A stretch of 64,000 bases of DNA from Microcaldota archaeon. GTDB lineage: Archaea > Micrarchaeota > Micrarchaeia > Norongarragalinales > Norongarragalinaceae. Of the stretch, positions 333-63,295 are shown in pieces. The notes under the pieces were generated by a model that was not told the origin of the DNA, ran no database searches, and worked only from the letters and a program-made list of their open reading frames with translations. A program made the translations under genes and the position numbers. The stretch covers positions 1 to 64,000 of the forward strand of contig JACQQD010000012.1 in the NCBI GenBank assembly GCA_016207165.1. The letters are read 5' to 3'. Every line of letters starts with the position of its first letter. Within the stretch, counting starts at the first letter, position 1.

Positions 333-638
333 ATGGACGCCGTCATTTCCGGGAGTGGGTGGGAACACCATGCACTGGTATTTTTCGCGTTGATGCTGAC
401 CGTGGGCTTTGTTTCCGGTGAATCGCTTTCCGAAAACCCGGCGGTAGTGGCCGCTGGGCTTTTCATGGCAGTTCCCTCGGCCCTGCTTGGCGTGATCGGC
501 GCCACGGCGCCTCTGTTGGCCCCCGTGGCCTTCATCATCATGGTAGGGTACCTGTTCAATGGATATCGCGCGGCGTGGGGAGACGCGGGGTTCATGGTCA
601 TTGCCGGAAGCTTTCTTGCACTGGTAGCCGGGGTCTAA
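333..638 (+). CDS. Small three-helix membrane protein (copy A)
   Basis: A 101-aa protein starting at ATG 333, with three strongly hydrophobic segments at about residues 14-30, 37-70 and 80-101. An in-frame GTG at 279 lies almost on the TATA box, so I prefer 333. The segment LLAPVAFIIMVGYL and the glycine/valine-ending last helix resemble the proteins at 2449-2763 and 18829-19128 (LLAPLAALAFLWWL, LLTPLAALAVLAYL). This suggests a paralogous family. It is divergent from a TrmB-type regulator, and its stop overlaps the stop of the convergent HTH-ferritin gene. Function unknown. Confidence 0.65.
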   Translation: MDAVISGSGWEHHALVFFALMLTVGFVSGESLSENPAVVAAGLFMAVPSALLGVIGATAPLLAPVAFIIMVGYLFNGYRAAWGDAGFMVIAGSFLALVAGV

Positions 639-1375
639 GCTTTTTGTTCTTCAATCACGCGTTGCAACCCTTTGAGCAAAAGCACGTGCTTGCGTTCGTC
701 GGCTTCCACGGATTCAATCAAGAGCCTTGCCGCCGGGCCGAGCCGGGCTTTGAGGGGCCCCAGGTCCGCTTCGTCGGCGGCTTCTTCTTGTTGGATCATT
801 TTGTCCACCGCTTCCTTGGACGGCAGTTTCACGTCGAAGAAGGATTCGGGCTCTTCCAAGTGGTGAATCAATACGGACACGGTATCCGCGTGCCGCAGCG
901 AATCCGAAGCGATCTGCCGGAACATGGTCTGAATCAGTTCGTCCTCGCAGGATTGTGCGAATCGCATGCTTTCCGAGGCGGCGTGCTGTTCTTCTTCCAA
1001 CCGGTCACGCAACAACAACAAGTATTTCCGACGCGAACCTTCGTAGGACAAGCTGGATGACGGGGATTTGGGAATTTCGGAAACCTGGATTTTTTCCGCG
1101 GTTTTCAGAAGCAACGTCGCCGCATTCTTGCCGGGTTTTCCACTGGCGCGAAGCAGTTCGTCGGCCAGCTTCTTGACGTGCGCCATGTTTTGCTTGTCGT
1201 GTTCGATGTCCACAGCCAGCTTACCGCCGCGTTTTCCGGACACGTACTGGGAAACGGCGGGGGCCGTCACTCCTAAGACTTTGGCAGCTTTGGCCCTGGA
1301 AAGTCCCTTGCTTAACACCAGTTCCTTGGCTACGCAGGCGCGGACCGATTGAAGAATGGATTCCGTTGACGTCAT
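635..1375 (-). CDS. HTH regulator fused to a ferritin-like domain (candidate iron or redox sensor)
   Basis: 246 aa. Residues about 1-95 are an XRE/COG2522-like helix-turn-helix region (AAKVLGVTAPAVSQYVSGKR). Residues about 115-240 look like a ferritin/rubrerythrin-type helical bundle, with ExxH motifs in RLEEEQHA near the start and in EADERKHV near the end. The middle helix has SDSLRHAD, where one expected carboxylate is replaced. The gene is divergent from the 51-aa ORF and the FTR1 iron permease at 1632, with palindromes in the shared promoter at 1416-1456. Known fact: ferritin-like folds bind di-iron centres. Inference: metal occupancy of the C-terminal domain controls DNA binding. The domain fold is read from motifs only. 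Confidence 0.65.
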   Translation of the reverse strand: MTSTESILQSVRACVAKELVLSKGLSRAKAAKVLGVTAPAVSQYVSGKRGGKLAVDIEHDKQNMAHVKKLADELLRASGKPGKNAATLLLKTAEKIQVSEIPKSPSSSLSYEGSRRKYLLLLRDRLEEEQHAASESMRFAQSCEDELIQTMFRQIASDSLRHADTVSVLIHHLEEPESFFDVKLPSKEAVDKMIQQEEAADEADLGPLKARLGPAARLLIESVEADERKHVLLLKGLQRVIEEQKA

Positions 1376-1415
1376 GAGCGCTTACCTAACAGCGTTTTTG
1401 ATTGGATTCACATTG

Positions 1416-1456
1416 TAACGTCGTTATCCTTTTAAATGTTCTTAACAATGGTTAAG
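1416..1456. promoter_or_regulatory. Iron-module promoter: TATA box flanked by two palindromes
   Basis: TAAC-GTC-GTTA occupies 1416-1426, the TATA-like TTTTAAA 1430-1436, and the perfect palindrome CTTAAC-AATG-GTTAAG 1441-1456. Both palindromes share a TAAC/GTTA core and bracket the TATA box, an arrangement expected for a repressor. A further TAAC half-site lies near 1387, close to the start of the divergent regulator. The likely ligand is the HTH-ferritin protein at 635-1375. Confidence 0.6.
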
Positions 1457-1466
1457 TCCGGTTTTC

Positions 1467-1622
1467 ATGCGCGGGCACTCTGAAGTCATGTACCTGGAAA
1501 TGGTGGCCATGGCCATCGGCGGGTGGCTGATGTACACCGGTGACTTGATCACCGGCGGCATCTTGTTTGTCATCGGAGCCGCCGTACATTTTGGCTTGGG
1601 CGGCTTTGCCACCGGGTTTTGA
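1467..1622 (+). CDS. 51-residue hydrophobic peptide upstream of FTR1
   Basis: ATG 1467 opens a 51-codon frame, with an alternative in-frame ATG at 1488. Most of the product is hydrophobic and glycine-rich (GGILFVIGAAVHFGLGGF) and forms one or two membrane segments. It ends 9 nt before the FTR1 start at 1632 and begins about 30 nt after the TATA box at 1430, so it is the first gene of the iron operon. No family recognised. It may be a small permease partner or simply a coupled leader ORF. Confidence 0.5.
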   Translation: MRGHSEVMYLEMVAMAIGGWLMYTGDLITGGILFVIGAAVHFGLGGFATGF

Positions 1623-1631
1623 GGGAATGAA

Positions 1632-2444
1632 ATGGTTTCCGCGTTCGTCATTCCGTTCCGAGAAACGCTTGAGGCCACGCTGATTGTCGGCGTAGTCTTG
1701 GCGTATTTGCACAAGACGAACAACCAATCCCTATCCAGACACGTGTTTTTTGGGGTGGCCGCCGCCATCGTCGCGAGCGTCTTGACGGCCATCGGGTTCC
1801 AGGTGTTTGCCGGGGGCTTCTCCGGAGCCAACGAGCAAATCTTTGAAGGCGCGACCATGTTTTTGGCTGCCGGCGTCTTGACGTACGTCATCTTCTGGAT
1901 GGCGGCCCAAACCCAATTCTCCAAAAGAATCGAGCAGAAAGTCGATGAGCACCTGACTTCTGGAAAAGTTCTTGGATTGACGGCGTTGTCGTTTTTCGCA
2001 GTATACCGGGAAGGCGTGGAAACGATTTTGTTCATGGGGGCGACGCTTTTTGCCGCCGGCGGACACTTGGACGTGCCATTCGCTTTGGCGGGCGTCTTGA
2101 CCGCGGCGGGCATTGGCTTTTTGGTGTTCAAGTCTGCGCTTCGCTTCCAGCTCAAAACCATCTTCAACGCCACCAGCATTTTGTTGTTGCTGTTTGCCGC
2201 CGGCTTGACCGCGCACGGGGTTCACGAATTTCAGGAAGCCAACGTGTTGCCGACACCGCTTGGAAAAGTGTGGGACACCAACTGGCTTTTGGACGAAAAA
2301 AGCACGGCGGGCACGTTTGCCAAGGCGTTGTTCGGCTACAACGCCGACCCATTTGAATTGGAGGTCGGGGCGTACGCCGCCTACCTGGTGCTAGTCGGCG
2401 TTGCGTACTTGCATTGGGTCCGACCCAAAGCCAAGCCGACTTGA
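1632..2444 (+). CDS. FTR1-family iron permease
   Basis: 270-aa polytopic membrane protein. It carries two copies of the FTR1 R-E-x-x-E signature: RETLE near residue 10, in the first helix, and REGVE near residue 125. Members of this family move iron across the cytoplasmic membrane using these glutamates. About seven hydrophobic segments are visible, which is normal for the family. The start ATG 1632 follows a weak GAGGGAATGAA ribosome site. It is co-directional with the 51-aa ORF and divergent from the HTH-ferritin regulator, which suggests iron-dependent control. No multicopper ferroxidase is visible in the window. Confidence 0.88.
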   Translation: MVSAFVIPFRETLEATLIVGVVLAYLHKTNNQSLSRHVFFGVAAAIVASVLTAIGFQVFAGGFSGANEQIFEGATMFLAAGVLTYVIFWMAAQTQFSKRIEQKVDEHLTSGKVLGLTALSFFAVYREGVETILFMGATLFAAGGHLDVPFALAGVLTAAGIGFLVFKSALRFQLKTIFNATSILLLLFAAGLTAHGVHEFQEANVLPTPLGKVWDTNWLLDEKSTAGTFAKALFGYNADPFELEVGAYAAYLVLVGVAYLHWVRPKAKPT

Positions 2445-2851: not shown

Positions 2852-3601
2852 GTGGAGAAGCTGGACGCCGACCAATGGCAGACCCTGAAAGGCTTGGGGC
2901 TGACGGACAACGAAGTGCGCACGTATTTGGCGCTTTTGGAGCAAGGCGCCACGACCGTCGGCCCCCTGGTGCCGAAAACGCAGATGCACCGCTCGCGCGT
3001 GTACGCTTCCCTGGAGCGGTTGGTGGAAAAGGGGTTCGTCTCCGTCATCCGGAAAAGCCAGAAACACATCTACCAGGCGTTGGCGCCGGAATCGTTGCTG
3101 GAAATGTTGGAGGAGAAAAAGCGGGGCGTCACGGAACTCTTGCCTGCGCTTTCCGCCATGGCGACGCCCAGCGTCCTGTCGGCGGCCATGTACGAGGGCA
3201 TTCCGGCGATGAAGGCGGTGCGCATGAAGCTCTTGTCGGAAATGAAGGCCGGGGAAACCCTGCTGGTGCAGGGTGCGCCAAGCCTTGGCAACAAGCGCAT
3301 CGAGGCGTGGTACCTGGAGTTTCACCGCCAACGCGAGAGAAAGGGCGTGAACGTCAAGATTTTGTACAACGCGGACGCGCGGCAATACGGCGAAAAACGG
3401 TTGAAGTTGTTCAAGCGCCTGCAGTGCCGGTACATGGAGGAAAAAACGGTGACCCCCGCTTGGGTGGACGTCTTCTCGGACTCCATCATGATCGTTGTGT
3501 TCAAGCCGCCGGTAATTAGCTTCGTGGTCAAAGACCGGGGATTGCGGGATAGTTTTGCCGCCTTTTTTGACGTGCTTTGGAAGAATGCGGCGCGGCGGTA
3601 G
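2852..3601 (+). CDS. TrmB-family transcriptional regulator
   Basis: 249 aa from a GTG at 2852. Residues about 5-75 form the TrmB winged helix (LGLTDNEVRTYLALLEQG, then a recognition helix in MHRSRVYASLERL). After a short coiled linker, the C-terminal half has the PLD-like/effector-domain pattern of these proteins (ending in the VFSDSIMIVVFKPP and FAAFFDVLW regions). Known members sense sugars or metabolites and repress or activate transporter genes. The TATA box at 2822-2832 implies a leaderless transcript. It is divergent from small membrane protein B, its likely target. Confidence 0.8.
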   Translation: MEKLDADQWQTLKGLGLTDNEVRTYLALLEQGATTVGPLVPKTQMHRSRVYASLERLVEKGFVSVIRKSQKHIYQALAPESLLEMLEEKKRGVTELLPALSAMATPSVLSAAMYEGIPAMKAVRMKLLSEMKAGETLLVQGAPSLGNKRIEAWYLEFHRQRERKGVNVKILYNADARQYGEKRLKLFKRLQCRYMEEKTVTPAWVDVFSDSIMIVVFKPPVISFVVKDRGLRDSFAAFFDVLWKNAARR

Positions 3602-4543: not shown

Positions 4544-4657
4544 AAGGGGCTCCCGAAATTCAGTGCGGACAAAGGGGACCCGAAACCCTAAATAAACGCG
4601 GACGCCTAGAACGTATTCGGAAACGTTTTTTGTTGGCTTGAAGGGTTAGTGAAGGAC

Positions 4658-7402
4658 ATGGCGGAAAAATCAAAGGCCTTGTACGAGTTTAGAAAACAAG
4701 TCAAGGCCCTCAAAGAGTACCGCGGACGCGGGACGGAACTGGTCACCGTGTACATCACTCCGGGGTACCCCATCCACGAAATCGCGTCCAAACTCCGCGA
4801 CGAATACGGGCAGGCCGGCAACATCAAATCCAAGACCACCCAGAAAAACGTGCAAGGAGCGCTGGAACGCATCCTGAATCATTTGAAGACGTTCAAGAAA
4901 ACGCCGGAAAACGGGGTGGCCTTGTTCGCCGGCAACATTTCGGAGAAAGAGGGCCGCACCGACATCCAACTGTTCACCATCGAGCCGCCCATGCCGCTTC
5001 ACACGCAATTCTACCGGTGCGAAAGCATCTTCGTGACTGAACCGCTGGAGGAGCTCTCCGAGAAAACAGATTCATACGGGTTGGTGGTTTTGGATGGAAA
5101 GGAAGCCACCATCGCGGTTCTGGCAGGAAAGAAAATCAACGTGATCAAGCACGTGCACACCACGGCCCACCAAAAAGTGGCAAAGGGGGGGCAATGCATC
5201 CATGAAAGCGAGTTGGTGACGCTTGCGGATGGGTCCATCGTCCCCATTCTGGAAGCCACCGAAAAATGTGACTTGGCAAGCCTTGACTTTGCCTCTCAAA
5301 AAACGCTAATGGCCAACTGCGACGCCGTATTCAGGCGTCAAGCACAAAAAGCGTACATTTTGACGACCAAAAACCCGAAGACAACGATTCAAACAACGCC
5401 GGAACACGTTTTCTTCGTCATCGGGTCAGAAGGCATTGCGGAGAAACACGTAGAAAACCTCAAAGTCGGCGACCGACTGGTAAGCGTACGGGAAATTGCA
5501 GCACCGCTTGCAAGCTACGTACGCCTGGAAGCCTGCATCCCGCTGAGCACCCCCACGTTAAACGCCGCCGGATGCAACACGCTAACTATGATTCGGCAGC
5601 AACGGGGATTGCGTCAAAAAGACGTGGCCCGGTCAATCCAAACTGACCAAATGTCCGTTTCAGAACTTGAACGTGGAACGGCTAACTTCAAGAAAGAACG
5701 GCTAGCCCGAATCCTTTTATTCTACGGTTTGGACGAAGGGAAATTTTATTCAAAGTACGTTGTACAAAAGCCGTTAATCCAATTCCCGGAAACACTTAAC
5801 CCGCCTTTGGCGCAAATGCTCGGCTACCTCATCGGCGATGGGACACACGACGGAAACCGGTTCATTTTTTACGAACCGGATCGGCAATGCGTCCTGCACT
5901 ACAAGCAATTAATTGAGAACACATTTGGCGTCAAGTGTAAAGTTAAGCCAAAGCCGCACCGCGGGTACCATGAGTTGCGGGCCTACAGCAAGTATCTGGT
6001 TGAAGCCATTGAAACGCTCTTTCCGGAAGCCCTCGATAAAAAAGTACCCCGTAAAGTCATGCAGTCCCCCAGCGACGTCACCGCCGCTTTTGCAAAAGGC
6101 CTGTTTGATGCCGAGGGAAGCGTCGGCAGCGGACGCGTGGCCATTGCCATGGCCAACAAGCAAGTCATCCACGTCTTGCACGCCTTGTTGCTCCGCCAAG
6201 GCATCATTTCAAGCGTCGGACCCAAAAAAGCCAAACACCAGCCTCAATACCAGCTGGAAGTCAACGACTACACTTCCCTAAAGCGATTCGCGGAAGTGAT
6301 TGGCTTTTCTCACGATAGAAAACAACGCGCGTTGTACGCCGTTTTGGCCCGAAAAACGAATAGGAACTATACCGACCAGATTCCATTGAATGGCCGCCTC
6401 GTTTCCAGATTGGCAAAACAAATGGGACTGCGTCACGCCCGATTCAAGGGGTTGCCGGGTTTCCTTAATGGACAGCGAAACATCAGTCGCGAGATTTTCG
6501 CAAACCGCGTGCTCCCCGTTTTCAAGACTCAACTCCAGCGTTTAAGCGAAACACAAGACCTGGAAGACCCAAAGACCCAAGAAGCCCAGCGCATCCTCGA
6601 ATTCCTGGAAAAAACAGCCTCTGGAACCGTCATTCCAGCTATCCTGGCCAAAAAAACCAGCGTCAAACCCACCGGACAATTCATTGACTTGACGATACCT
6701 CAAACCCAAAACTTCATCGTTAACGGGCTGGTCGTCCACAACAGCGCCGCGCGGTACGACCGCCTGCACACCGAAGCCGTGGAATACTATTACAAGCGAA
6801 TCGGAGAAGCCATGGACGCGTTCTTGAACGTGAAAAACTTCAAGGGCGTCATCGTCGGCGGACCGGGGCCCACGAAAGAGAATTTCCTGAAAGCCAACGC
6901 ATTCAATTACCAACTCAACGTCTTGGGCACCGTGGACACAGGGTACACGGACGAATACGGCTTGCGCGAGTTGCTGGAGAAAGGCCAGGATTTAATTGCC
7001 CAACAGGAATCCGTCAAGGAAAAACAACTCATCGACCGCTTCATGAAGGAAGTCTCCACCAACGGTTTGGCGGCGTACGGCTATACGGACATCAAGCAAA
7101 AACTGGAGAACCACCAATTGGAGGCGTTGCTGGTCTCCGAGGATCTGGACTTGATGCAATTTGACGCGGTTTGCTCGCAATGCGGGAAAGTGCGGACGGT
7201 GTTCGGCGAAAAATTCGAGGAAAGCGAGTGCTCCTGCGGCGGCAAGTACAGACTGAAAAGCGATACGCACGCCTCCAACGCCCTGATCGAGGAAGCCGAA
7301 CGCCAAAACGTTCCCGTGGAACTCATTTCGCGGGACACGGCGGAAGGCGCCACGTTCTACGCCACCTTCAAGGGATTGGGCGCGTTTTTGCGATACCGGT
7401 AG
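4658..7402 (+). CDS. prf1: Peptide chain release factor aRF1, interrupted by an intein
   Basis: 914-aa precursor; removing the 516-residue intein leaves 398 aa, normal for aRF1. The N-domain has NIKS at residues 55-58 (stop-codon recognition). The M-domain has the catalytic GGQ at 177-179, which triggers peptidyl-tRNA hydrolysis. The intein starts directly after that glutamine, and the extein resumes with SAARYDRLHTEAVEYYYKR. The C-domain has two cysteine pairs (CSQC and CSCG) in a zinc ribbon. Start: ATG 4658; a GTG at 4649 would add three residues. Release activity should depend on splicing, since the GGQ loop is broken in the precursor. Upstream AT-rich CCTAAATAAACG near 4588 may be the promoter. 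Confidence 0.93.
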   Translation: MAEKSKALYEFRKQVKALKEYRGRGTELVTVYITPGYPIHEIASKLRDEYGQAGNIKSKTTQKNVQGALERILNHLKTFKKTPENGVALFAGNISEKEGRTDIQLFTIEPPMPLHTQFYRCESIFVTEPLEELSEKTDSYGLVVLDGKEATIAVLAGKKINVIKHVHTTAHQKVAKGGQCIHESELVTLADGSIVPILEATEKCDLASLDFASQKTLMANCDAVFRRQAQKAYILTTKNPKTTIQTTPEHVFFVIGSEGIAEKHVENLKVGDRLVSVREIAAPLASYVRLEACIPLSTPTLNAAGCNTLTMIRQQRGLRQKDVARSIQTDQMSVSELERGTANFKKERLARILLFYGLDEGKFYSKYVVQKPLIQFPETLNPPLAQMLGYLIGDGTHDGNRFIFYEPDRQCVLHYKQLIENTFGVKCKVKPKPHRGYHELRAYSKYLVEAIETLFPEALDKKVPRKVMQSPSDVTAAFAKGLFDAEGSVGSGRVAIAMANKQVIHVLHALLLRQGIISSVGPKKAKHQPQYQLEVNDYTSLKRFAEVIGFSHDRKQRALYAVLARKTNRNYTDQIPLNGRLVSRLAKQMGLRHARFKGLPGFLNGQRNISREIFANRVLPVFKTQLQRLSETQDLEDPKTQEAQRILEFLEKTASGTVIPAILAKKTSVKPTGQFIDLTIPQTQNFIVNGLVVHNSAARYDRLHTEAVEYYYKRIGEAMDAFLNVKNFKGVIVGGPGPTKENFLKANAFNYQLNVLGTVDTGYTDEYGLRELLEKGQDLIAQQESVKEKQLIDRFMKEVSTNGLAAYGYTDIKQKLENHQLEALLVSEDLDLMQFDAVCSQCGKVRTVFGEKFEESECSCGGKYRLKSDTHASNALIEEAERQNVPVELISRDTAEGATFYATFKGLGAFLRYR
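5195..6742 (+). mobile_element. Intein with LAGLIDADG endonuclease and internal HTH, inserted after GGQ
   Basis: 516 codons in frame. It begins with Cys (CIHESELVTLADGSIVPI, a splicing block A) and ends FIVNGLVVHN, followed by Ser +1 of the host, the residues needed for protein splicing. Two dodecapeptide motifs, LGYLIGDGT (about 5815) and GLFDAEGSV (about 6097), mark a LAGLIDADG homing endonuclease. Between splicing block B and the first dodecapeptide lies an XRE-like helix-turn-helix (about 5576-5740; IRQQRGLRQKDVARSI, then MSVSELERG). Codon choice looks less GC-biased than in the flanking exteins. Homing activity is inferred, not shown. Confidence 0.9.
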
Positions 7403-61075: not shown

Positions 61076-61170
61076 CGCGGCACCAAAACCCCAAGACAGA
61101 CCACAGAACCCCCGCATCAAAAGGACGCGGCAAAGCATAACGCCGTTATTTTTATTGTCGAAGACATAAC

Positions 61171-61227
61171 GCTTATATACCTACATATGGTATCTGATCA
61201 TACAAAAAACACAAGATATTGTGTTTT
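61171..61227 (+). promoter_or_regulatory. nrd promoter: TATA box and NrdR-box-like palindrome
   Basis: CTTATATAC (61172-61180) is the TATA box, putting transcription start near 61200. ACACAAGATATTGTGT (61209-61224) closely matches the bacterial NrdR-box consensus ACACWATATATWGTGT, and the flanks extend the palindrome to 9-bp arms (61206-61227). It lies in the leader of nrdD, 14 nt before the start codon. Confidence 0.65.
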
Positions 61228-61240
61228 CGGGGGAGTGGGC

Positions 61241-63295
61241 ATGGTCATCCGGAAAATCAGGAAACGCGACGGCCGGTTGGAGGACTTTGACCACAAGCGC
61301 ATTTCCACCGCGATTTTCAAGGCCGCCAAATCCGTGGGGGGCCAGGACTGGTCGCTGGCGGAAAAACTGACGGACGACGTGGTCCGGCAACTGGAAGCCC
61401 AATTCGCGGGCCAGACGCCGACCGTAGAGCAAGTCCAGGACCTCGTGGAAAAGACGCTCATTGAATCCGGGCACGCCAAGACCGCGAAAACCTACATTTT
61501 GTACCGCAAACAGCGCGCCGACATCCGCGACGTGCGGAAACTCATGGACTCCGACGAACTGGTGGACGGGTACCTGGGGGAAATGGATTGGCGCGTCAAG
61601 GAAAACGCGAACATGAGCTACAGCCTTCAGGGTCTTAACTTCCACATCTCTTCGGCCGTGATTTCCAGGTACTGGCTGAACAAGTTGTACCCGGAAAAAA
61701 TCGCTTCCGCCCATTCGTCCGGGGACTTCCACATCCACGACCTCGGCATTCTGGGGCCGTACTGCGTGGGCTGGGACCTCAAGGACCTTTTGTTGAACGG
61801 GTTTGGCCACGTGTCCGGAAAAATTTCAAGCAAGCCCGCCAGGCACTTCCGCACGGCTCTGGGCCAAGTCGTCAATTTCTTCTATACCTTGCAAGGCGAG
61901 GCCGCCGGAGCGCAGGCGTTTTCCAGCTTCGACTCGTATTTGGCGCCGTTCATCCGCTACGACGGACTGGACGAAAAGCAAGTCAAACAAGCCCTCCAGG
62001 AATTTGTTTTCAACATCAACGTGCCCACCCGCGTGGGCTTCCAGACGCCGTTTACCAACATCACCATGGACTTAAACGTGCCGAACATGATGAAAGGCGA
62101 GCCCGTCATTGCGGGCGGAACATTCCAGAACGAGGTATACGGCGACTTTCAGCCGGAACTGGACGTCTTGAATCAGGCGTTTGCCGAAGTCATGATGGAA
62201 GGCGACGCGCAAGAAAGGGTGTTCACGTTTCCCATTCCCACGTACAACATCACGAAAAACTTCAATTGGGACGCGCCGGTCGTGAAAAACGTGTTCGAAA
62301 TGACGGCCAAGTACGGCGTGCCATACTTTTCCAACTTTGTCAACTCCGACATGTCGCCGGAAGACGCCAGGAGTATGTGTTGTCGATTGAGGCTCGACAA
62401 CCGGGAACTGCGCAAACGCGGCGGAGGACTCTTTGGAGCCAATCCGCTTACCGGAAGCGTGGGGGTCGTCACCATCAACTTACCCCGCATTGGCTTTACG
62501 TGCAAGACCGAAGACGCGTACTTTGAAAAACTCGACGCCTTAATGGACTTGGCCAAAGAAAGCCTGGAAACCAAGCGCCACGTATTGGAAGGCTTCACGG
62601 AAAAAGGGCTGTACCCGTATTCACGGTACTACCTGCGCGACATCAAAAGCCAGTTCGGCCAATACTGGAAAAACCACTTCGCCACCATCGGCCTCATTGG
62701 AATGAACGAGTCCGTCCAGAACTTTTTGGGCGTGTCCATCGCCGACATCCAAGGCAAAGCCTTTGCACTCAAAATCCTCACCCACATGCGCAACCGCTTG
62801 GGCCAGTACCAGGAGGAAACCGGAAACATCTATAACCTGGAGGCCACTCCCGGCGAAGGCACGTCGCACCGCTTGGCGCGGCTGGACGCCGCCATGCACC
62901 CCGGCATCCGCGTGGCCAACCAAAACGCCGTCAACGTCCGCCAGGCCGCGGCATACTACACGAATTCCTCGCACCTACCCGTAGGCCACACGACGGACGT
63001 TTTCGAAGCCTTGGAACACCAAGACGAACTCCAAACCCAGTACACCGGCGGAACGGTGCTCCACGGATTTTTGGGAGAACAAGTCTCGGACTGGCGGACT
63101 GCCCGGGACTTGGTGCGCAAAATCGCGGAAAACTTCCACCTCCCGTACTTCACGTTGACACCCACGTTTTCCGTCTGCCCCAACCACGGGTACCTTGCGG
63201 GCGAGCATTTCTATTGCCCCACGTGCGACGAAGAAATCGGGTACGTTCAAGAAAAGGAGGAGAAAACCCATGGAAGCGCAATGCACCCCACATGA
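61241..63295 (+). CDS. nrdD: Anaerobic ribonucleoside-triphosphate reductase, large part without glycyl-radical end
   Basis: 684 aa from ATG 61241; an in-frame ATG at 61187 lies before the predicted transcription start. N-terminal ATP-cone (VIRKIRKRDGRLEDFDHKRI). The barrel has FSSFDSYLAPF, PTRVGFQTPFTNITMDLN, SMCCRLRLDNRELRKRGGG and GSVGVVTINLPRIGF. The C-terminal zinc site is CPNHGYLAGEHFYCPTC. The family normally ends with a glycyl-radical domain ~60 residues later. Here the frame stops at 63295 and that domain is on a separate small ORF at 63440. Known role: dNTP synthesis in anaerobic conditions, activated by NrdG. Confidence 0.92.
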   Translation: MVIRKIRKRDGRLEDFDHKRISTAIFKAAKSVGGQDWSLAEKLTDDVVRQLEAQFAGQTPTVEQVQDLVEKTLIESGHAKTAKTYILYRKQRADIRDVRKLMDSDELVDGYLGEMDWRVKENANMSYSLQGLNFHISSAVISRYWLNKLYPEKIASAHSSGDFHIHDLGILGPYCVGWDLKDLLLNGFGHVSGKISSKPARHFRTALGQVVNFFYTLQGEAAGAQAFSSFDSYLAPFIRYDGLDEKQVKQALQEFVFNINVPTRVGFQTPFTNITMDLNVPNMMKGEPVIAGGTFQNEVYGDFQPELDVLNQAFAEVMMEGDAQERVFTFPIPTYNITKNFNWDAPVVKNVFEMTAKYGVPYFSNFVNSDMSPEDARSMCCRLRLDNRELRKRGGGLFGANPLTGSVGVVTINLPRIGFTCKTEDAYFEKLDALMDLAKESLETKRHVLEGFTEKGLYPYSRYYLRDIKSQFGQYWKNHFATIGLIGMNESVQNFLGVSIADIQGKAFALKILTHMRNRLGQYQEETGNIYNLEATPGEGTSHRLARLDAAMHPGIRVANQNAVNVRQAAAYYTNSSHLPVGHTTDVFEALEHQDELQTQYTGGTVLHGFLGEQVSDWRTARDLVRKIAENFHLPYFTLTPTFSVCPNHGYLAGEHFYCPTCDEEIGYVQEKEEKTHGSAMHPT

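What the first reader, a model, noticed from the sequence alone, without database searches (positions are those of the whole stretch)
635..2444. Candidate iron-sensing regulator: HTH fused to a ferritin-like bundle, divergent from FTR1
The 635-1375 protein joins a COG2522-like HTH to a helical domain with ExxH motifs. It faces an FTR1 permease across a promoter with two TAAC...GTTA palindromes around the TATA box. A di-iron centre acting directly as ligand sensor would be a mechanism different from Fur, DtxR or IdeR.
Basis: partly seen in the sequence, partly recalled or inferred. Interest (0 to 1): 0.75.

Follow-up and report, generated by a model that had tools for sequence, protein, structure and literature searches.

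The report
Archaeal metal-uptake regulator with ferritin-like sensor
In several groups of archaea, a DNA-binding domain is fused to a domain resembling iron-storage proteins, and this hybrid sits beside metal-uptake genes next to matching DNA operator sites, which points to a previously undescribed family of iron or metal sensing gene switches.

Summary
The 635-1375(-) protein is an XRE/COG2522-like HTH fused to a divergent ferritin-like domain. I found 28 full-length relatives in Micrarchaeota, Thermoplasmata and one Nitrososphaerales. Twenty-six adjoin a metal transporter: FTR1 (3), NRAMP (5) or ZIP (18).

The palindromes are real. All 22 transporter promoters tested carry a TAAC-N3/4-GTTA or TCAC-N3/4-GTGA palindrome, where shuffles predict at most 0.02 each. 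The HTH recognition region changes with the operator type. In Thermoplasmata the perfect operator occurs once or not at all per genome. Two genomes carry a second composite site, each before an NRAMP gene.

The predicted structure (pLDDT 89) gives two helical hairpins like rubrerythrin/sulerythrin. The hairpins do not close into a bundle in the monomer, so a domain-swapped dimer is likely. Five of six bacterioferritin-type ligands are conserved in FTR1- and ZIP-linked members, but the helix-B Glu is Ser in all 28. NRAMP-linked Micrarchaeota lose three more ligands, and their NRAMP has the DxxG-TxxA motif of Mg2+-type transporters.

Best reading: an autoregulated repressor of metal uptake whose ferritin-like domain senses the metal. 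DNA targeting is well supported. Direct iron sensing is inferred. I found no published description.

The parts
635..1375 (-). HTH + ferritin-like regulator (246 aa)
1199..1375 (-). N-terminal HTH_3 / COG2522-like DNA-binding region (residues 1-59); recognition region TAPAVSQYVSGKRG
   Evidence: PF01381 27.2 bits over cut-off 23; AF2 helices 4-22, 27-34, 38-46, 51-59
1043..1198 (-). linker helices (residues 60-111), low confidence at 101-106
641..1042 (-). ferritin-like domain (residues 112-245), helices A 112-142, B 146-174, C 187-201, D 213-245; putative ligands E129, H162, E197, E227, H230; S159 replaces the helix-B Glu
1416..1426 (.). operator 1, palindrome TAACGTCGTTA
   Evidence: conserved in relatives
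1430..1437 (.). TATA-like TTTTAAAT core between the operators, shared by the divergent promoters (inferred)
1441..1456 (.). operator 2, palindrome CTTAACAATGGTTAAG
1467..1622 (+). small conserved membrane protein ORF (51 aa) accompanying FTR1
   Evidence: present in all three FTR1 loci; no Pfam family over cut-off
1632..2444 (+). FTR1/EfeU iron permease (270 aa), RExxE motifs at residues 10 and 126

Best explanation
The protein is a one-component, probably dimeric, metal-responsive transcription regulator that controls its own gene and the divergent metal-uptake gene. Its HTH domains bind paired palindromes (TTAAC-N3/4-GTTAA here, TTCAC-N3-GTGAA in Thermoplasmata) that flank or abut the archaeal TATA box. 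Bound dimers would block TBP/TFB or polymerase when the cell has enough metal. Its C-terminal ferritin-like domain, formed from A/B and C/D helical hairpins that probably swap between subunits, carries a modified carboxylate/histidine metal site (E129, H162, E197, E227, H230, with Ser-159 in place of one bridging Glu). This site most likely binds Fe(II), or a similar divalent metal, reversibly, and its occupancy sets the geometry of the HTH pair. Shown by computation: the fusion, the transporter neighbours, the operators, the co-change of recognition region with operator, and the conserved ligands. Inferred: metal binding, repression as the sign of control, domain swapping, and iron as the ligand of the window protein.
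For: 26 of 28 homologues adjoin FTR1, NRAMP or ZIP metal transporters, three unrelated transporter families. All 22 tested transporter promoters carry the palindrome, at most 0.02 expected each. GTTCACN3GTGAAC occurs at one place in each of 8 Thermoplasmata genomes and nowhere in the other 6 genomes searched; seven sites are at the ZIP promoter and one is before an NRAMP. The composite site gives ZIP plus NRAMP in G308 and G310. The recognition region changes with the operator: TxxA-SQY...KRG with TTAAC, VPSS-SQY...KRL with TTCAC. The domain profile finds bacterioferritins and designed di-iron bundles in the PDB (E 3.5e-5 to 0.43); NCBIfam EncB 4.5e-4 and Pfam Rubrerythrin 0.0018-0.0035 are sub-threshold hits in several members. 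The AF2 models have pLDDT 88.9 and 90.6, and fold matches are dominated by sulerythrin, rubrerythrin, Bfr and Dps. E129, D158, S159, R161, H162 and D226 are invariant in 28/28. A TAACGNCGTTA site precedes a cysteine desulfurase gene in two sister species.
Against: No metal binding or DNA binding is measured. The canonical helix-B Glu is Ser in all members. No curated cut-off for a ferritin-like family is reached. Z values of 9-10 also go to ESCRT-III and BAR hairpins, so the fold match alone is weak, and the bundle is not closed in the monomer model. NRAMP-linked Micrarchaeota members have lost E197, E227 and H230. A DtxR-family regulator coexists in the window's genome. In Micrarchaeota genomes single TAACN3GTTA sites are common by chance.
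Confidence: 0.66

Rival explanations
1. The regulator is a redox switch: a di-iron or di-metal ferritin-like site reacts with O2 or peroxide, as in rubrerythrin and sulerythrin, and adjusts metal uptake to oxidative stress rather than to metal level.
For: Closest folds are rubrerythrin and sulerythrin, whose di-iron sites are oxidised by H2O2 (entry 7o8d title).
Against: Known targets are metal importers and one cysteine desulfurase, not peroxidases or catalases. One bridging Glu is lost in all members.
Confidence: 0.17
2. The sensed metal is not iron but Mn(II), Zn(II) or, in the NRAMP-linked clade, Mg(II).
For: ZIP and NRAMP transporters carry Zn, Mn or Fe. The Micrarchaeota NRAMP neighbour has the DxxG-TxxA motif described for Mg2+-transporting NRMTs in PMC8806188, and its regulators lost E197, E227 and H230.
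Against: FTR1/EfeU is an iron permease family, and the sufS-linked site points to Fe-S metabolism. The window's own member keeps the Glu/His set.
Confidence: 0.2
3. The ferritin-like domain is only a dimerisation scaffold. It does not bind metal, and the signal comes from elsewhere (for example DtxR or a partner protein).
For: Ligand loss in the NRAMP clade; helix-B Glu replaced; DtxR present in G000-G002.
Against: E129 and H162 are invariant and E197, E227, H230 are kept across three phyla in FTR1- and ZIP-linked members. DtxR-C is not found in G019 and five NRAMP-type genomes.
Confidence: 0.12
4. The protein does not regulate the neighbouring transporter; neighbourhood and palindromes are coincidental.
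For: None beyond the lack of an experiment.
Against: 22 of 22 promoters carry the operator, near-unique genome-wide sites lie at transporter promoters, and the HTH changes with the operator.
Confidence: 0.03

Closest known systems
Fur / DtxR-IdeR / MntR metalloregulators
   Same: One-component DNA-binding regulators of metal uptake with palindromic operators over promoters; works like them.
   Different: Different HTH family and a ferritin-like instead of Fur/DtxR sensor domain. P0001 has no Fur or DtxR Pfam hit. G000 also has a separate DtxR, and no Fur above cut-off was found in the 15 genomes searched.
Hemerythrin-type iron sensors FBXL5 and BRUTUS/BTSL (PMC12022348)
   Same: A four-helix carboxylate/His di-iron domain read out as an iron sensor.
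   Different: Those are eukaryotic E3 ligase parts with a hemerythrin-like fold; this is an archaeal transcription factor with a ferritin-like hairpin domain.
Rubrerythrin / sulerythrin / bacterioferritin / EncB encapsulated ferritins
   Same: Helical hairpin folds and Glu...(E)xxH...Glu...ExxH ligand pattern.
   Different: Fused to an HTH; helix-B Glu replaced by Ser in all members; no curated family threshold reached.
Stand-alone archaeal COG2522-like HTH proteins
   Same: Homologous N-terminal HTH.
   Different: Those are about 105-145 aa, most with a C-terminal CxxC motif in place of the ferritin-like domain.

Membership tests
XRE-type HTH_3 (PF01381) | Pfam gathering score | tested here: met
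   27.2 bits against cut-off 23, residues 17-49
Ferritin-like di-iron proteins (rubrerythrin / bacterioferritin) | Curated family score (PF02915, EncB NF058679) | tested here: not met
   Sub-threshold only: 0.038 EncB for P0001; 0.0018-0.11 Rubrerythrin and 0.00045-0.045 EncB for relatives
Ferritin-like di-iron proteins (rubrerythrin / bacterioferritin) | Full ligand set E / ExxH / E / ExxH | tested here: not met
   E129, H162, E197, E227, H230 present, but the helix-B Glu is S159 in 28/28; NRAMP-linked members also lack E197, E227 and H230
Ferritin-like di-iron proteins (rubrerythrin / bacterioferritin) | Antiparallel four-helix bundle | tested here: inconclusive
   Two hairpins predicted with pLDDT about 90; A/B hairpin matches sulerythrin at rmsd 1.5 over 62 residues, but whole domain 116-127 residues at rmsd about 12-13; no dimer could be modelled
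Ferritin-like di-iron proteins (rubrerythrin / bacterioferritin) | Binds two metal ions | not testable with these tools
   needs purified protein
Fur | PF01475 domain | tested here: not met
   no hit of P0001
DtxR/IdeR/MntR | PF02742 domain | tested here: not met
   no hit of P0001; genome has a separate DtxR at C12:126476
FTR1/EfeU iron permease (neighbour) | PF03239 and RExxE motifs | tested here: met
   E 3.7e-42; RETLE and REGVE
NRMT Mg2+ transporter (neighbour in L034, L039, L044, L050) | DxxG-TxxA/T binding-site motif | tested here: met
   DAGG and TTIA in the four aligned sequences; motif from PMC8806188. Substrate itself not testable here

The most novel reading that the evidence does not exclude
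A new class of archaeal metalloregulator in which a ferritin-like carboxylate/His site, altered to release metal reversibly (bridging Glu changed to Ser), directly reads cellular iron. In this family the ligand set of the sensor and the binding-site motif of the neighbouring transporter have changed together: the full set with FTR1 and ZIP, a reduced set with an NRMT-like NRAMP.
Probability: 0.5. Interest if true: 0.83.

Novelty: new variant of a known kind. Interest (0 to 1): 0.72.

Why it matters
Iron control in DPANN archaea and uncultured Thermoplasmata is largely unmapped. A transcription factor with a ferritin-like sensor would be the prokaryotic counterpart of the hemerythrin-type iron sensors of animals and plants, and would show that an iron-storage/oxidase fold was reused as a metal gauge. 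The family comes with predicted operators, targets and ligand residues, so it can be tested directly. Its clades, paired with different transporters, offer a natural series for how sensor and transporter specificity change together.

Tried and rejected
Fur or DtxR membership was rejected. The idea of many regulon sites in the window's genome was not supported: single TAACN3GTTA matches there are at chance level, and most sites inspected had no clear metal link. The TAACGCCGTTA before nrdD is left as unproven. A stand-alone ancestor of the ferritin-like domain was sought in 301 genomes of the phylum; every match at E <= 1e-4 was already fused. A viral-contig search gave nothing. ESCRT-III and BAR matches are taken as generic long-hairpin similarity because identity is 3-16% and no ligand or context supports them. 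Literature searches for a ferritin-like transcription regulator found nothing relevant in the held library, which is not proof of absence.

Full report
Observation. The window lies in a 1.27-Mb archaeal genome of the same genus as Candidatus Micrarchaeota groundwater MAGs. The ORF 635-1375(-) encodes 246 aa. Residues 17-49 reach the Pfam HTH_3 cut-off, and the N-terminal region is related to short stand-alone COG2522-like HTH proteins, most of which carry a CxxC motif where this protein has its long C-terminal domain. The divergent gene 1632-2444(+) is an FTR1/EfeU permease with both RExxE motifs. Between them lie two exact palindromes, 1416-1426 and 1441-1456, around TTTTAAAT, far above chance for that region.

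Family. A homology search found 28 full-length relatives (the window's protein included) in three archaeal groups: Micrarchaeota, Thermoplasmata and one Nitrososphaerales. In the 301 genomes searched in the window's phylum, nine carry the domain and all nine as the fusion. Neighbours: divergent FTR1 in the window, G001 and G019; divergent NRAMP in five Micrarchaeota; ZIP upstream and co-directional in 17 Thermoplasmata, and divergent in the Nitrososphaerales member. The ZIP assignment rests on ZupT E 2.7e-8 and Pfam Zip E 0.001 (both under curated cut-offs) plus ZIP-like xN-TEG repeats. The Nitrososphaerales transporter is seen only as a partial gene at a contig edge, matched by tblastn to the Thermoplasmata ZIP (E 2e-13). 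Two loci are uninformative or odd: L032/L036 sits at a contig edge, and L047 has only a ZIP fragment beside it while an intact ZIP with an operator lies elsewhere in that genome. In the tree the NRAMP- and ZIP-linked members each form one group; deep placements are unsure because of long branches.

Operators. All 22 transporter or divergent promoters examined carry a perfect TAAC-N3/4-GTTA (Micrarchaeota, Nitrososphaerales) or TCAC-N3/4-GTGA (Thermoplasmata) palindrome; shuffled sequences give 0 to 0.019 per promoter. Spacing is constant within groups: 27.5 bp in the window and G001, 21 bp in NRAMP loci, and a fixed 15-bp spacer to a second conserved TTCACNGACA element just upstream of the TATA box in Thermoplasmata. 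In 14 genomes GTTCACN3GTGAAC was found at one place in each of eight and at none in six. Seven of the eight sites are the ZIP promoter, and the eighth lies before an NRAMP gene (Pfam 2e-35) in G310. Allowing mismatches in the composite site shows the same pair, ZIP and NRAMP, in G308 and G310. The recognition region is TxxA(V/I/L)SQY...KRG with TTAAC operators and VPSS-VSQY...KRL with TTCAC operators, with L058 intermediate. In two sister species a TAACGNCGTTA palindrome beside a TATA-like sequence precedes a cysteine desulfurase paralogue. This is suggestive only, as single sites are common in these genomes.

Sensor domain. AlphaFold2 gives mean pLDDT 88.9 for the full protein and 90.6 for the domain alone. 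Foldseek hits are overwhelmingly ferritin-like proteins, none significant (best E 0.13 and 0.045). VIA-align places the A/B hairpin on sulerythrin (1j30) with rmsd 1.5 over 62 residues, and the whole domain on sulerythrin with 116-127 residues aligned but rmsd about 12-13 A, meaning that the C/D hairpin points away. From my own knowledge, sulerythrin is a helix-swapped rubrerythrin, so I infer a swapped dimer. Similar Z values go to ESCRT-III and BAR hairpins, so the assignment leans equally on sequence: the domain profile retrieves bacterioferritins (E 0.002, 0.0057, 0.18) and designed di-iron bundles (3.5e-5, 0.43) from the PDB, and EncB and Rubrerythrin models are repeated sub-threshold hits. 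These alignments put E129 on the helix-A Glu, S159-x-x-H162 on the helix-B ExxH, E197 on the helix-C Glu and E227-x-x-H230 on the helix-D ExxH. E129, D158, S159, R161, H162 and D226 are invariant in 28 of 28. E197, E227 and H230 are kept in FTR1- and ZIP-linked and Nitrososphaerales members but become A/V, D and Q in NRAMP-linked Micrarchaeota. In that clade the NRAMP has DAGG and TTIA, the DxxG-TxxA motif that PMC8806188 reports for Mg2+-transporting NRMTs, whereas the Thermoplasmata NRAMP keeps AxxM.

Mechanism. Shown by computation: the fusion, the conserved linkage to metal importers, the operators and their matched HTH, and the ligand pattern. Inferred: the protein is a dimer that binds both palindromes around the TATA box, represses its own gene and the importer when its ferritin-like site holds metal, and releases DNA when metal is scarce. 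Ser in place of the bridging Glu may weaken the site and make it reversible. For the window's member iron is the most likely metal because of FTR1.

Known systems. It works like Fur or DtxR regulators but belongs to neither. Hemerythrin-type iron sensors FBXL5 and BRUTUS (PMC12022348) are the nearest conceptual parallel. Because two tested features of canonical ferritin-like families are not met (score and full ligand set), I describe the domain as a divergent relative rather than file it as a member. DtxR coexists in G000-G002 and most Thermoplasmata tested, but was not found in G019 and the five NRAMP-type genomes; no Fur above cut-off was found in the 15 genomes. Some of these genomes are incomplete.

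Noticed in passing
window 1467-1622(+); L031 and L033 just downstream of FTR1: A 51-aa small membrane protein (MRGHSE..MY...M...GAA.HF..GGF.TGF) accompanies FTR1 in all three FTR1 loci: upstream of it in the window, downstream in G001 and G019. No Pfam family over cut-off; possibly an FTR1 partner.
   Followed up: partly
window 61138-61148, before 61187-63295(+): TAACGCCGTTA palindrome just upstream of a TATA-like sequence and an anaerobic ribonucleotide reductase gene (NRDD); could be a second target, but single sites are near chance level.
   Followed up: partly
window 4649-7402(+): Archaeal release factor aRF1 interrupted by an intein (splicing domain plus LAGLIDADG), which itself carries an HTH_3 domain.
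   Followed up: partly
L034, L039, L044, L050: Divergent NRAMP genes in these Micrarchaeota have a Mg2+-type (NRMT-like) DxxG-TxxA binding motif, beside regulators that lost three putative metal ligands.
   Followed up: partly
G308 C28:1251 (L188) and G310 C17:5339 (L181): NRAMP genes far from the regulator carry the composite operator; they form the predicted second arm of the regulon in Thermoplasmata.
   Followed up: yes
window 2852-3601(+): TrmB-family regulator close to the FTR1 locus, target unknown.
   Followed up: no
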